Positions 2,572 through 21,455 of a stretch of 64,000 nt of DNA are shown here, one piece after another. The DNA comes from Ignavibacteriota bacterium (lineage in GTDB: Bacteria > Bacteroidota > Ignavibacteria > Ignavibacteriales > Ignavibacteriaceae): contig CP053446.1 in NCBI GenBank assembly GCA_013285405.1, positions 1,525,985 to 1,589,984 of the forward strand. Direction: 5' to 3'. The position numbers were made by a program, and so were the translations under genes. The notes beneath the pieces are model-generated. The model searched no databases. It was given only the letters and a program-made list of their open reading frames with translations, and was not told where the DNA came from. Each line of letters begins with the position of its first letter. The stretch's first letter is position 1.

Positions 2572-2791
2572 TGAGCAGAGGACTTCATAATATAAAAGGT
2601 AAAGATGCAGTAAAAGCTTTTGTAAAATTTGGCGGAGTAGAGAGAAAAGCAAAGGAGATCATATCAATATCAAGATGCCGAATGGAATGATCGTAACTAT
2701 TCCCGGAAGGAAAGAACTTAAAATCGGTTTAATTAAAAGTGTCATCAAAAAAGCAGGATTAACAGAAGAAGAATTTTTGAATTTGCTTTAA
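2571..2791 (+). pseudogene. hicA: HicA-family toxin, frameshifted
   Basis: The first 30 or so codons read MSRGLHNIKGKDAVKAFVKFGGVERKAK, the HicA N-terminus with its double-stranded-RNA-binding-like start. The frame then runs into a stop at 2690. Moving to the frame one base back from about 2653 gives GDHINIKMPNGMIVTIP, then GRKELKIGLIKSVIKKAGLT and EEEFLNLL with a proper stop. This restores the G-DH motif containing the catalytic histidine and the normal length of about 73 residues. One missing base in the A/G-rich stretch near 2650-2660 explains the break. It could be a true inactivating mutation or a sequencing error. Homology of both halves is clear. Confidence 0.82.
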
Positions 2792-2917
2792 GCAAATAAC
2801 TCGCCAGAACAGCCTCGAAACTTTTCCATTTACTTTTATAATGCAGTTTTCTACCAAAAATTATTTTCAACATAGTTACTCGTTCGGAGAGAATAATTTA
2901 CTTCTTCAATCTTCCTC

Positions 2918-2937
2918 ATTCTTCCCAAAGAAAACAA
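2918..2937 (+). repeat. 20-bp intergenic repeat, copy 2
   Basis: Identical to the copy at 1593-1612, and followed by CGG as in the copy at 3723. It lies between the converging ends of hicA and the PIN-domain gene, in a stretch of about 220 bases in which nothing else was recognised. Confidence 0.75.
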
Positions 2938-3011
2938 CGGTTGGAACAAGAGAACCGAATAAGCTCTCTACTGCGGCTATTGGCACCTATTGTCATTAGA
3001 GGATTATCTTT

Positions 3012-3383
3012 TTAACTTAACTCTGTTGTAACTAAAGTAATTTCTTTGATCTTTTTAAAACTTTTATCAAATGTTAAAATTAATGCATTAAGAAATAATG
3101 CGGTTGCACAAATAATAGCATCGGGAAGTTTTATTTTATAATTCTTTCTTAAGTGAATAGTCTCTCTTTTAATTTCCGGATTCAGACCGATGACATCAAC
3201 AGATTCAAGAAAGTTTTTTATTTTTTCTTCTTCAAACTTACTCAGATTAGGGTATGAAAGCAGTTCTAGTTCAGTTATAAATGAAATGAAAAACTCTCCT
3301 TTCGGCAGAGTTGCAGGATCGATTTTGCCGCCTAATAAATACAAGACAGCATTTGTATCCAAAACTATATTAGTTCCACTCAC
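3012..3383 (-). CDS. PIN-domain toxin, VapC-like
   Basis: This 123-residue protein has the PIN-domain layout: the first acidic residue in NIVLDTNAVLYLL (Asp9), an acidic residue in the ITELELL helix, an Asp in LPDAIICATAL, and a final Asp in ILTFDKSF. These four acidic positions form the metal site of VapC endoribonucleases, which usually cut tRNA or rRNA. All are present and the length is normal, so the enzyme should be active. Its first codons overlap by 14 bases the end of the gene for a small basic protein, which is the expected antitoxin. The family is certain; the RNA target is unknown. Confidence 0.85.
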   Translation of the reverse strand: MSGTNIVLDTNAVLYLLGGKIDPATLPKGEFFISFITELELLSYPNLSKFEEEKIKNFLESVDVIGLNPEIKRETIHLRKNYKIKLPDAIICATALFLNALILTFDKSFKKIKEITLVTTELS

Positions 3384-3579
3384 TTCTAATCTTTTTTTGG
3401 TATTTCAGTGGATCTGTGCTTAACTTAATTGAACCGACGTACTTTTTGAGTTTTTCTCTGGTTAGCTTTTTAGAAGAGGATTTCTTACCTTTCAATCTCT
3501 TTACTAAGAAATCAATGGGTACAATGGCTTTAATTCTCTCTCCTCTAGCATTTACAATGTATTCGATATTTTCAGACAT
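3370..3579 (-). CDS. VapB-like antitoxin
   Basis: I start this protein of about 69 residues at the second ATG (MSENIEYIVNARGERIKAIV) because an AGAAGGA ribosome-binding site lies about 7 bases upstream. The frame itself extends 11 codons further. The N-terminus resembles the short beta-strand arm of small antitoxins, with the phrase YIVNARGERIKAIVPID. The lysine-rich second half (KGKKSSSKKLTREKL) would wrap the toxin. It sits directly upstream of the PIN-domain toxin and overlaps it by 14 bases, the usual antitoxin-first operon. The assignment rests mainly on position; the DNA-binding class could not be settled. Confidence 0.65.
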   Translation of the reverse strand: MSENIEYIVNARGERIKAIVPIDFLVKRLKGKKSSSKKLTREKLKKYVGSIKLSTDPLKYQKKIRSEWN

Positions 3580-3722
3580 TTGTAATCCTTCTGTTTCATT
3601 TCTTTTTAACACCGATTAAAATATAAAAATTAATCCTTAGGATAAAGGGAAAGTGAAAAATCGCTCATATTTCATCTGAATCAATTAAAGCAGTGAAAAT
3701 CATATTCTTAAAAAACTTTCGA

Positions 3723-3742
3723 ATTCTTTCCAAAGAAAACAA
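3723..3742 (+). repeat. 20-bp intergenic repeat, copy 3
   Basis: Matches the copies at 1593-1612 and 2918-2937 with one mismatch (ATTCTTTCC for ATTCTTCCC). The downstream CGG is shared with the 2918 copy. A perfect small hairpin follows 20 bases later. Confidence 0.7.
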
Positions 3743-3762
3743 CGGGAAGGAATAATTTTTAA

Positions 3763-17226: not shown

Positions 17227-18303
17227 ATGAGTTTTGTAAAAGAGAAACCGTATAACAAACTTCCCCTGCTTCTGCCGGATAAAAACAACTGGGAGACAAT
17301 TGATGTTTATAAAAAACTTGCTGATGCCCGTGCGGCTTTAGCGGAGTTAAAGGGCAGATTACCGATTATACCTAATCCACTCATGTTAATAAACACACTG
17401 GTTCTGCAGGAAGCAAAGGACAGTTCGACAATAGAAAATATATTTACTACTAATGACGCTCTCTATAAAGCATTCTCATCAAATTTAACTAATGATATAT
17501 CTACGAAAGAAGTTCTCCGTTATCGTGAGGCTTTGTGGAATGCATTTACAAAAATGAAAAAGCCTTCTGATTATTCTGAGAAACTAGCTGTTGAAATCTT
17601 CCGGACAATTACGGATAAGAAAGAAGAAATCAGAAAGGTGCAAGTGTATATAGGAAGCAAAGACCATATAGTTTATACGCCGCCATCATACGGAAATATC
17701 CTGAAGGAAAAATTAAATAATTGGTTTGATATTGCTCTTAAAGATAAAAGTGTTGACCCTCTCATTAAAATGGCGATTCTTCATTATCAATTTGAAGCCA
17801 TTCATCCTTTCAGCGATGGGAACGGAAGAACGGGAAGAGTTCTGAATGTATTGTATCTCTGCAAAGAAAAGCTGATTGACCTGCCGGTAATCTATTTATC
17901 AAAGTTTATTCTCGACAATAAAAATGATTACTACAAATTATTAAGAGATGTTACTGAAAATAAAAAATGGGAAAGCTGGATTCTTTTTATGCTCGGTGGA
18001 GTAAATGAAACCGCAAAACTCACGCTGAACAAAGTGAATTCAATTTATGGAGAATATCTTTCTGTAATTGAAAAAGTAAAAGAAAAAGCGCCGGATATTT
18101 ATACCCGCGAATTAATTGAAATAATTTTCAACCAGCCGTACTGTAAAATTGCAATCCTTGAAGAAAAGAAAATTGCATCGCGTAATACTGCAAGTAAGTA
18201 TCTCCGAAGACTGGAAGAACTTGGCATACTTGTTTCAGAAATCGTTGGCAGGGAAACACTCTATAAAAATATTTTGCTCTTCAACATTTTATCTTCAAAA
18301 TAA
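17227..18303 (+). CDS. Fic-family AMPylase with built-in inhibitory motif
   Basis: Fic proteins transfer AMP (or related groups) to hydroxyls of target proteins. The catalytic HPFSDGNGRTGR spans residues 193-204 with intact His193. An N-terminal inhibition motif of the form (S/T)xxxE(G/N) is visible as S66-STI-E70-N71, so this is a class II, self-inhibited Fic protein. The last 80 residues or so form a winged-helix-like domain (CKIAILEEKKIASRNTASKYLRRLEELGI) that would bind DNA, a common fusion in this family. The length of 358 is normal. It is a single gene. A striking array of TGCACA half-sites begins 28 bases after its stop codon and is a plausible, untested target for its own DNA-binding domain. 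Confidence 0.9.
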   Translation: MSFVKEKPYNKLPLLLPDKNNWETIDVYKKLADARAALAELKGRLPIIPNPLMLINTLVLQEAKDSSTIENIFTTNDALYKAFSSNLTNDISTKEVLRYREALWNAFTKMKKPSDYSEKLAVEIFRTITDKKEEIRKVQVYIGSKDHIVYTPPSYGNILKEKLNNWFDIALKDKSVDPLIKMAILHYQFEAIHPFSDGNGRTGRVLNVLYLCKEKLIDLPVIYLSKFILDNKNDYYKLLRDVTENKKWESWILFMLGGVNETAKLTLNKVNSIYGEYLSVIEKVKEKAPDIYTRELIEIIFNQPYCKIAILEEKKIASRNTASKYLRRLEELGILVSEIVGRETLYKNILLFNILSSK

Positions 18304-18330: not shown

Positions 18331-18438
18331 TGTGCACGTCAATAACTATATGCACAACGGTTGTGCAAGAGTTTCCTGATATGCACAAATAATTATCATT
18401 ATTGTGCAAGTAAAACAGAAATGCACAGATTTTGTGCA
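18331..18438. repeat. Phased array of seven TGCACA/TGTGCA half-sites
   Basis: TGTGCA or its complement TGCACA begins at 18331, 18351, 18362, 18382, 18403, 18422 and 18433, in strictly alternating orientation. The intervals are 20, 11, 20, 21, 19 and 11 bases, close to whole helical turns. Several neighbours form clean inverted repeats, for example TGCACAAC/GTTGTGCA across a short spacer. The array lies between two converging genes (fic and a DUF1579-like gene) and encodes nothing obvious. It looks like an operator or protein-binding array. A similar inverted pair precedes the toxin-antitoxin operon at 20828-20867. Confidence 0.6.
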
Positions 18439-18471: not shown

Positions 18472-18499
18472 AAAAGCGGGCTGCAGAAAACCCGCTTTT
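18472..18499. terminator. Bidirectional rho-independent terminator
   Basis: AAAAGCGGG and CCCGCTTTT form a perfect 9-bp stem around a 10-base loop between converging genes. The A/T-rich arms give a T-tract on both strands, so it should end the DUF1579-like transcript and any read-through from fic. Confidence 0.8.
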
Positions 18500-18514
18500 A
18501 CAGTGTGCAGAAAT

Positions 18515-19729: not shown

Positions 19730-20227
19730 ATGGCAAAAAATTCATCATTCGATATTGTATCTGAAATTGATTTCCAGGAAGTAGATAACGCAGTTAATCA
19801 GGCAATCAAAGAAATTCACCAGAGATATGACTTAAAAGATTCTGCAACAGAGATCGAGCTAAATAAAAAAGATAAGCTGATAAATATCAACACAAAAGAT
19901 GACTATTCACGTAAACAATCAATTGATATTCTACAGACAAGGTTTATTAAAAGAAGTTTATCAATTAAAGTTATGAAGCTGGAAGAACCCGAACCGGCGG
20001 CAACCGGAAGACTGAAACAAAAAATTAATCTGCAAAGCGGAATTTCTAAAGACAATGCGAAGATAATTACAAAGATGATTAAGGATATGAATCTGAAAGT
20101 AAGTGCGCAGATAATGGATGAAAGAATCCGTGTACAGGGAGCTAAAAAAGATGATTTGCAGATCGTAATCTCAAAAGTAAAAGAAGCTGATCTTGATTTC
20201 CCTGTTCAGTTTGTTAATTATCAGTGA
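19730..20227 (+). CDS. yajQ: YajQ-family nucleotide/cyclic-di-GMP-binding protein
   Basis: The 165 residues are full length for this family: MAKNSSFDIVSEIDFQEVDNAV, then IHQRYDLKDSAT, RFIKRSLSIK, KQKINLQSGISKDNAKII, and VQGAKKDDLQIVIS, ending DFPVQFVNYQ. YajQ proteins have two ferredoxin-like domains, bind cyclic di-GMP in Xanthomonas, and bind RNA or nucleotides elsewhere. What is odd is downstream. The last 84 bases recur at 20728-20811 at about 89% identity, with mostly third-codon-position changes, and in worse shape at 21472-21529. The present 3' end may therefore have been supplied by an integrated element, with the copies as old junctions. Confidence 0.95.
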   Translation: MAKNSSFDIVSEIDFQEVDNAVNQAIKEIHQRYDLKDSATEIELNKKDKLININTKDDYSRKQSIDILQTRFIKRSLSIKVMKLEEPEPAATGRLKQKINLQSGISKDNAKIITKMIKDMNLKVSAQIMDERIRVQGAKKDDLQIVISKVKEADLDFPVQFVNYQ

Positions 20228-20727: not shown

Positions 20728-20811
20728 AAAAAAGATGACTTGCAGATTGTCATCCCAAAAGTAAAAGAAGCCGATCTAGATTTTCCTGTTCAGTTTGTTA
20801 ATTACCAGTAG
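20728..20811 (+). pseudogene. Duplicate 3' end of yajQ, copy 2
   Basis: These 84 bases align without gaps to the final 84 bases of yajQ (20144-20227), with about nine differences. Most differences are synonymous, so the translation KKDDLQIVIPKVKEADLDF and its ending are kept. There is no start codon or upstream yajQ sequence. The silent-site pattern says the copy came from a once-functional yajQ allele, as expected when an element integrates into a gene end. Confidence 0.85.
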
Positions 20812-20827
20812 ATAAATTTTAACTTGT

Positions 20828-20867
20828 AATATTGTGCAAAATATTGTACGTTTATCTGCACAATATT
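20828..20867. promoter_or_regulatory. Operator-like inverted repeat of the toxin-antitoxin operon
   Basis: AATATTGTGCA and TGCACAATATT are perfect 11-bp inverted arms with an 18-base spacer, which itself contains AATATTGTAC, a third partial copy. The repeat ends 16 bases before the antitoxin start, the right place for antitoxin-mediated autorepression. The TGTGCA/TGCACA core is the same hexamer as in the array at 18331-18438. Confidence 0.7.
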
Positions 20868-20883
20868 TTAGTCGGAGAATTTA

Positions 20884-21159
20884 ATGCACAAAATACAATT
20901 AGACCAGGATATTCAACCTCTTTCCGAGTTCCGTTCCAAAGTAGCTTTTTACTTTGAAAAAGTTAAGAAGACAAAAAGACCTTTAATCATTACTCAAAAC
21001 GGAAAAAGCACCGCAATATTGTTAGATGTTTCAGAGTATCAATCAATGCTTGATAAGCTGGAAGTAATTGAAGATGTTAAATTAGCAGAAGCACAACTCA
21101 GCCAGGGGAAGGAAATATCTCATAAAGAATTGAAGAAGAAGTTTGCCAGGAAAGCTTAA
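20884..21159 (+). CDS. Phd/YefM-type antitoxin
   Basis: This 91-residue protein matches the Phd/YefM N-terminal fold: IQPLSEFRSKVAFYFEKVKKTKRPLIITQNGKSTAILLDVSEYQSMLDKLE is the typical 'SEFRxxxxxxxxxVxxxxxPxxITxxGxxxAVLxxxxxY' pattern. The rest is a helical toxin-binding tail (VKLAEAQLSQGKEISHKEL). It would neutralise the ParE-like toxin two bases downstream and repress the operon through the 11-bp inverted repeat just upstream. A start ATG with GGAG about 7 bases upstream supports the call. The pair sits inside the yajQ-associated insertion region. Confidence 0.88.
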   Translation: MHKIQLDQDIQPLSEFRSKVAFYFEKVKKTKRPLIITQNGKSTAILLDVSEYQSMLDKLEVIEDVKLAEAQLSQGKEISHKELKKKFARKA

Positions 21160-21161
21160 TT

Positions 21162-21455
21162 ATGAAAATATCCTGGTCACCACTTGCTGCTGATAGATTG
21201 GAAAATATTTATGAATACATATCAGTTGATAATAAAGCAGCAGCACAAAAAGTGGTTGAAAGAATTTTTAAAAAAGTTGAATCATTAGCAAAGAATCCTG
21301 AAAGAGGAAGAAAGGTACCCGAAACAAACAGAGAAGAAATCAGAGAATTATTTGAAAGTGATTATAGAATCAACTATCGCATTGAAACGAAAAGAGTTTC
21401 TATTTTGACAATCAGAAATTTTAAACAGATATTACCCGATAAGGATATTAAGTAA
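21162..21455 (+). CDS. RelE/ParE-family toxin
   Basis: The 97 residues begin MKISWSPLAADRLENIYEYIS, the standard ParE start, followed by AAAQKVVERIFKKVESLAKNPERGRKVPE and a C-terminal DYRINYRIETKRVSILTIRNFKQ. Proteins of this subfamily either poison DNA gyrase (ParE) or cut mRNA on the ribosome (RelE). The helix pattern and the NPERGRKVPE loop favour ParE. It starts two bases after the antitoxin stop. The full family length suggests it is functional. Downstream lies a further degraded copy of the yajQ end. Confidence 0.88.
   Translation: MKISWSPLAADRLENIYEYISVDNKAAAQKVVERIFKKVESLAKNPERGRKVPETNREEIRELFESDYRINYRIETKRVSILTIRNFKQILPDKDIK

What the first reader, a model, noticed from the sequence alone, without database searches (positions are those of the whole stretch)
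18331..18438. Helically phased array of TGCACA/TGTGCA half-sites after a Fic gene
Seen: seven half-sites in strict alternation with intervals 20, 11, 20, 21, 19, 11, near whole turns of DNA. It lies in non-coding DNA just after fic. Inference: cooperative binding of a dimeric regulator, perhaps the C-terminal winged helix of the Fic protein itself. An array downstream of the gene, between converging units, is unusual for a repressor; a looping or silencing role, or an unnoticed small RNA promoter, is possible.
Basis: partly seen in the sequence, partly recalled or inferred. Interest (0 to 1): 0.65.

Follow-up and report, generated by a model that had tools for sequence, protein, structure and literature searches.

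The report
Toxin's own DNA docking array
The regularly spaced DNA half-sites after this gene are very probably the binding sites of the gene's own product, an anti-phage AMPylating toxin (SoFic); over a hundred relatives carry similar arrays whose letters follow the protein's DNA-reading helix, which points to an unreported self-binding system.

Summary
Seven alternating TGTGCA/TGCACA half-sites (intervals 20, 11, 20, 21, 19, 11) lie 28 nt after a SoFic-type fic gene; the phased pair occurs nowhere else in the 3.86 Mb genome. Half-sites are conserved across four genera (81-95%; spacers 39-65%), and relatives without fic here lack the array. Among 199 SoFic homologs from many phyla, 107 carry a comparable phased alternating array, usually upstream of fic, sometimes downstream, never inside the gene. 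An unbiased spacing histogram peaks at 30, 40 and 70 bp, the 20-20-20-10 grammar seen here. The half-site letters differ between homologs and follow the C-terminal recognition helix: RNTA goes with TGCACA, RQTA with TGTCGA, RI/RL-TA with TGTATA. In a blind scan of all protein columns the best predictors were residues 320, 318, 319 and 317. Where the array is upstream, autorepression is likely (precedent: CccR). Here it is downstream, a placement associated with fic genes directly behind a co-directional gene; a docking or sink role is plausible but unproven.

The parts
17227..18303 (+). fic: SoFic-type protein adenylyltransferase (358 aa; Fic_N, Fic motif HPFSDGNGRTGR, inhibitory-helix motif SSTIEN, C-terminal winged helix)
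   Evidence: Pfam PF13784, PF02661, PF21248; PADLOC SoFic E=1.3e-105; Foldseek to SoFic 3zcn, TM 0.95
18067..18273 (+). SoFic-like_C winged-helix domain (residues 281-349)
   Evidence: Pfam PF21248; AF2 model helices 294-300, 308-313, 319-331 and wing 335-348
18181..18219 (+). recognition helix (residues 319-331, RNTASKYLRRLEE); N320 is the best single predictor of half-site sequence in the family
18331..18336 (+). half-site 1 (TTGTGCA)
18351..18356 (-). half-site 2 (ATGCACAA on + strand)
18362..18367 (+). half-site 3; forms the short dyad TGCACAACGGTTGTGCA with half-site 2
18382..18387 (-). half-site 4
18403..18408 (+). half-site 5
18422..18427 (-). half-site 6
18433..18438 (+). half-site 7; forms the short dyad TGCACAGATTTTGTGCA with half-site 6
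18504..18509 (+). possible outlying eighth half-site, 71 bp after half-site 7 (may be chance)
   Evidence: the 70-bp same-strand distance is part of the family grammar
18472..18499 (.). hairpin AAAAGCGGG...CCCGCTTTT between the array and the convergent gene; probable bidirectional terminator, so fic mRNA may run through the array
   Evidence: (fold; z -1.05, not significant by energy alone), sequence

Best explanation
The array is the specific binding platform of the Fic protein encoded beside it. Shown by sequence: a SoFic-family toxin has a C-terminal winged helix, and a helically phased alternating array sits beside its gene, with letters that follow the recognition helix. Inferred: Fic dimers bind it cooperatively, all on one face of the DNA, with a 70-bp repeat of four half-sites (20-20-20-10). 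In most relatives the array covers the fic promoter region, so the output there is probably autorepression, keeping a dangerous enzyme scarce. In this locus fic lies 84 nt behind mfd and the array lies just after the gene, so it cannot occlude the fic promoter. Here I infer a local docking or sink role: the array captures newly made Fic and limits free active toxin, perhaps also blocking antisense or read-through transcription. Confidence is about 0.88 for self-binding and about 0.4 for docking/sink as the output at this locus; the figure given is for the statement as a whole.
For: (1) Unique in the genome and adjacent to fic. (2) Across four genera half-sites are conserved (40/42, 35/42, 34/42) more than spacers (43/66, 30/67, 27/69) although gene contexts differ. 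(3) Relatives whose mfd is not followed by fic lack the array. (4) A phased-array detector exceeds the 99.9% null level in 87/197 upstream flanks, 28/196 downstream flanks and 0/199 coding controls. (5) Same-strand distances from seeds chosen without any phase criterion peak at 30, 40-41 and 70 bp; 57% fall in those bins versus 27% in shuffles. (6) Motif similarity versus recognition-helix similarity r=0.62, partial r given catalytic-domain identity 0.48, p=0.001; blind column scan ranks N320, S318, R319, A317 first. (7) Residue-tetrad table: RQTA-TGTCGA 4.15 hits per flank, RNTA-TGCACA 3.38, RITA/RLTA-TGTATA 3.1, RPTA-TGTAAA 2.9, RTTL-TGGACA 4.25, off-diagonal values mostly well below these. 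(8) Held-out plasmid, E. coli and phage-collection homologs: tetrad rules right in 11 of 16. (9) AF2 places residues 319-331 in the recognition helix. (10) Precedent: CccR autorepresses through its HTH (PMC9755527); CbFic2 is regulated by DNA binding through its HTH (PMC10628234).
Against: No binding experiment. About 92 of 199 homologs show no array at my threshold. RK-type helices show no single motif. Some orphan arrays have no fic remnant nearby (L218, L221, L227, L230, L232, L233). Held-out failures: four RQ helices without the preceding IAK context (two near-identical) and one RLTA. The output of a downstream array is inferred only. Shared ancestry inflates the Mantel statistics, although the partial correlation and the distant pairs argue against ancestry alone.
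Confidence: 0.75

Rival explanations
1. Same binder (Fic), but the output here is purely transcriptional: bound Fic represses an unannotated promoter in or near the array (antisense to fic or a small RNA), or blocks transcription entering from the convergent DUF1579 side.
For: Arrays are usually upstream of fic, some reaching within about 10-30 nt of the start codon, and CccR is a proven autorepressor (PMC9755527). Some downstream arrays precede a co-directional gene, e.g. the hsdR-like gene in L012 and an hsdS gene in L126.
Against: Promoter-like matches around the array do not exceed chance (8 versus 6.5 +/- 2.5; one + strand match overlaps the array). The next gene is convergent here and in G002. 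No half-sites in phase lie upstream of this fic.
Confidence: 0.35
2. The array is the operator of another regulator, for example the Phd/YefM-ParE module at 20884-21455, whose upstream region also carries TTGTGCA/TGCACAA.
For: Half-sites at 20833+, 20857- and 20885- just upstream of and at the start of that operon.
Against: Their spacing (24, 28) does not fit the grammar. Arrays co-occur with fic in relatives with other neighbours, and letters follow the Fic helix.
Confidence: 0.05
3. The repeats act as RNA: hairpins in the fic 3' untranslated region (stability, termination, or a repeat antitoxin RNA as in type III toxin-antitoxin systems).
For: The transcribed region folds better than shuffles (z -2.62) because the sites are palindromic; two dyads look terminator-like.
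Against: Most relatives have the array upstream of the gene; whole-turn phasing and covariation with a DNA-recognition helix have no reason to exist for RNA. No Rfam family.
Confidence: 0.04
4. Chance or low-complexity artefact, a replication origin (DnaA boxes) or plasmid-like iterons.
For: AT-rich background; the half-site TATGCACA resembles the DnaA box in part.
Against: Genome-wide uniqueness, cross-genus conservation, co-occurrence with fic; dnaA lies about 160 kb away.
Confidence: 0.01

Closest known systems
SoFic anti-phage Fic family (SO_4266 of Shewanella, PDB 3eqx/3zcn; EcSofic, PMC12249575)
   Same: Same domain order, active-site and inhibitory motifs, C-terminal winged helix; PADLOC SoFic hit and TM 0.95
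   Different: No DNA site is reported for this family in the papers I could read; PMC10628234 states DNA binding by SoFic had not been demonstrated. EcSofic is described with a downstream antitoxin AS1; no such small gene was seen between fic and DUF1579 here
CccR of Yersinia pseudotuberculosis (PMC9755527)
   Same: Fic enzyme with C-terminal HTH that binds inverted repeats near its own gene; dimer needed
   Different: CccR: one pair AGATAATCAT-N26-ATGATAATCT in its promoter. Here: seven half-sites at 20/10-bp phasing, downstream of the gene, with a different half-site
CbFic2 of Coxiella (PMC10628234)
   Same: Fic with C-terminal HTH whose AMPylation/deAMPylation switch is governed by DNA binding and dimerisation
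   Different: Only random DNA was tested; no cognate array is known; distant in fold comparison (TM about 0.56)
Autoregulated toxin-antitoxin operators (Phd/YefM; from general knowledge)
   Same: Several inverted half-sites by the gene, cooperative binding
   Different: There the antitoxin reads the operator; here the toxin itself carries the DNA-reading domain, and the array can lie downstream

Membership tests
SoFic defence family | Fic_N + Fic + SoFic-like_C domains | tested here: met
   Pfam, all above cut-off
SoFic defence family | Matches the SoFic defence model | tested here: met
   PADLOC PDLC03963 E=1.3e-105 over residues 10-356
SoFic defence family | Catalytic motif HxFxDGNGRxxR and N-terminal inhibitory motif (S/T)xxxE(G/N) | tested here: met
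   HPFSDGNGRTGR and SSTIEN; their key residues are invariant in alignment A1
SoFic defence family | Protects against phage | not testable with these tools
   needs a phage assay
SoFic defence family | Downstream AS1 small antitoxin gene (described for EcSofic) | tested here: not met
   no plausible small gene between fic and DUF1579; AS1 is described for one E. coli locus only, so it is not a defining feature of the family
Self-regulating Fic-HTH repressors (CccR type) | Inverted repeats overlapping the fic promoter | tested here: not met
   no phased half-sites in 300 nt upstream of this fic; upstream arrays are present in most array-bearing relatives
Self-regulating Fic-HTH repressors (CccR type) | HTH domain reads the repeats | tested here: inconclusive
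   strong covariation evidence, no binding assay
Type III toxin-antitoxin (repeat RNA antitoxin) | Tandem direct RNA repeats preceding the toxin gene | tested here: not met
   alternating inverted half-sites after the gene, no direct repeats

The most novel reading that the evidence does not exclude
The array is a DNA antitoxin or tripwire. SoFic dimers are held on it in an inactive (autoinhibited or deAMPylating) state, and loss of that platform, for example when an infecting phage degrades or remodels host DNA, frees active toxin and triggers abortive infection. This would explain position independence (upstream or downstream), multi-copy 70-bp arrays and arrays that persist next to decayed fic genes.
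Probability: 0.2. Interest if true: 0.92.

Novelty: new variant of a known kind. Interest (0 to 1): 0.7.

Why it matters
What holds SoFic, a widespread one-gene anti-phage toxin, in check is an open question; no DNA site is reported for it in the papers I found. A conserved array with a readable residue-to-base code gives a direct, cheap test: footprint the array, swap helix residues and see the site preference change, then measure AMPylation and phage protection with and without the array. It also predicts the binding sites of many uncharacterised Fic proteins from sequence alone.

Tried and rejected
DnaA boxes or oriC: dnaA is about 160 kb away and window GC skew shows no clear switch. RNA family: no Rfam match above threshold. 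Antitoxin operator sharing TTGTGCA: spacing does not fit. A first array scan without phase constraint gave many low-complexity hits in AT-rich flanks, so it was replaced by a phased detector with coding and shuffled controls and by an unbiased distance histogram. The tetrad rule alone fails for RQ helices in a VS/IA context (L259, L262, L263, L266) and for one RLTA (L261), so residues 317-318 matter too. Literature: six searches and three papers read found no report of arrays for SoFic. PDB entries 9tb0, 9tc4, 9tch and 9tcl (SoFic, absent from the fold library of April 2026) could contain DNA; I could not check.

Full report
Observation. The seven TGTGCA/TGCACA half-sites exist exactly as described: starts 18331+, 18351-, 18362+, 18382-, 18403+, 18422-, 18433+, intervals 20, 11, 20, 21, 19, 11. 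They lie in non-coding DNA between the fic stop at 18303 and the convergent DUF1579 gene. TGTGCA itself is ordinary in the window (34 versus 25.7 +/- 5.3), but the phased pair is found nowhere else in the 3.86-Mb genome, with reversed-pattern controls at zero.

The gene. fic encodes a 358-residue SoFic-type AMPylase: Fic_N, Fic and SoFic-like_C domains, PADLOC SoFic model E=1.3e-105, AF2 model at mean pLDDT 89.6 with the winged-helix recognition helix at 319-331 and TM 0.95 to SoFic 3zcn.

Conservation. A relative of the same genus (G002, Fic 90% identical) and two of other genera (G015, 75%; G007, 49%) keep an array just after fic. Half-sites are 40/42, 35/42 and 34/42 identical to the window, spacers 43/66, 30/67 and 27/69. 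The surroundings differ: mfd-fic in G000 and G002, a Schlafen-helicase defence cluster in G015, a type III restriction operon in G007. Where mfd is not followed by fic in relatives, the array is missing too. So fic and array form one module.

The family. I collected 199 non-identical SoFic-like homologs. A detector of alternating, phased half-sites, with any letters allowed, exceeds the 99.9% null level in 87 of 197 upstream flanks, 28 of 196 downstream flanks and 0 of 199 coding segments; 107 homologs have an array at that threshold. With seeds chosen by count only, no phase imposed, same-strand distances pile up at 30, 40-41 and 70 bp: 57% in these bins versus 27% in shuffled flanks. This is the grammar 20-20-20-10, a 70-bp unit with four half-sites, which the window array follows (20, 11, 20, 21, 19, 11). 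An E. coli SoFic (strain DA33133) has about eight tandem 70-bp units before the gene (TRF period 70); 380 of 5,426 E. coli genomes match the query used, which included part of the array.

The code. Half-site letters differ between homologs. Motif similarity correlates with recognition-helix similarity (r 0.62; partial r 0.48 given catalytic-domain identity; permutation p 0.001). Scanning all protein columns blindly, the four best predictors are N320, S318, R319 and A317, at the start of the recognition helix. By tetrad 319-322: RQTA-TGTCGA, RNTA-TGCACA, RITA/RLTA-TGTATA, RPTA-TGTAAA, ENTA-ATTAAA, RTTL-TGGACA. RNTA with TGCACA recurs in a Parachlamydiaceae (L126) and a Saprospiraceae (L133) genome. 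Held-out homologs from plasmids, E. coli and one phage-collection record fit in 11 of 16 cases; failures are four RQ helices in another context and one RLTA. The second fic of this genome has helix GNVKT and AAAGGTAAA-like sites instead. I conclude that the Fic protein itself reads the array.

Position. Upstream arrays can extend to within about 10-30 nt of the start codon, where a bound protein would block transcription. Downstream arrays, as here, mostly begin within about 40 nt of the stop codon and are associated with fic genes lying directly behind a co-directional gene (9/18 versus 3/71, p=1.2e-5). An operator that only represses the fic promoter does not explain this. The array may hold or buffer the protein locally, act on antisense or read-through transcription, or, most daringly, keep the toxin inactive until the DNA is damaged. 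Arrays next to truncated fic genes (L226, L228, L231, L239, L241) and orphan arrays without fic (L218, L221, L227, L230, L232, L233) show that the array can outlive or lack the gene locally.

Prior knowledge. CccR, a Yersinia Fic with an HTH, autorepresses through one inverted pair with a 26-bp spacer (PMC9755527). CbFic2 changes oligomeric state and activity on DNA, and its authors note that SoFic DNA binding had not been shown (PMC10628234). EcSofic toxicity depends on its C-terminal domain and dimerisation (PMC12249575). No paper I found reports the arrays. Newer PDB entries of SoFic (9tb0, 9tc4, 9tch, 9tcl) could not be inspected.

Limits. No binding data; ancestry inflates correlations; about half of homologs show no array at my threshold; the output of the downstream array is inference.

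Noticed in passing
L245 2081-2648 (E. coli DA33133, upstream of fic 2670-3746): About eight tandem 70-bp units of TGTCGA half-sites before an E. coli SoFic gene; another E. coli allele (L246) has fewer, so copy number varies.
   Followed up: partly
L226, L228, L231, L239, L241; orphans L218, L221, L227, L230, L232, L233: Phased arrays next to truncated or decayed fic genes, and some with no detectable fic remnant within about 1.5 kb.
   Followed up: partly
L247 3001-3101 (E. coli EF5-18-41): Stretch about 79% identical to a SoFic array region at the end of a glycosyltransferase gene beside a flagellar cluster, with no fic annotated nearby.
   Followed up: no
L023 upstream of fic: Thirteen TGTAACA-type half-sites with strictly alternating 20/11-bp intervals (31-bp period), a different grammar in a Fic with helix PNRMTASRIL.
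   Followed up: no
L012, L126, L144, L257, L261, L262: SoFic genes inside or beside restriction-modification genes (hsd genes, DNA methylases), sometimes with the array before the next restriction gene.
   Followed up: partly
window 20833-20890: TTGTGCA/TGCACAA inverted repeat before a Phd/YefM-ParE module (20884-21455); looks like its own operator, spacing does not match the fic array.
   Followed up: partly
window 20735-20812: Apparent partial duplication of the 3' end of yajQ (copy of about 20150-20227).
   Followed up: no
G000:C1:905088-906167 (L045): Second SoFic homolog in the same genome (43% identical) with a different recognition helix (GNVKT) and AAAGGTAAA-like repeats upstream.
   Followed up: partly
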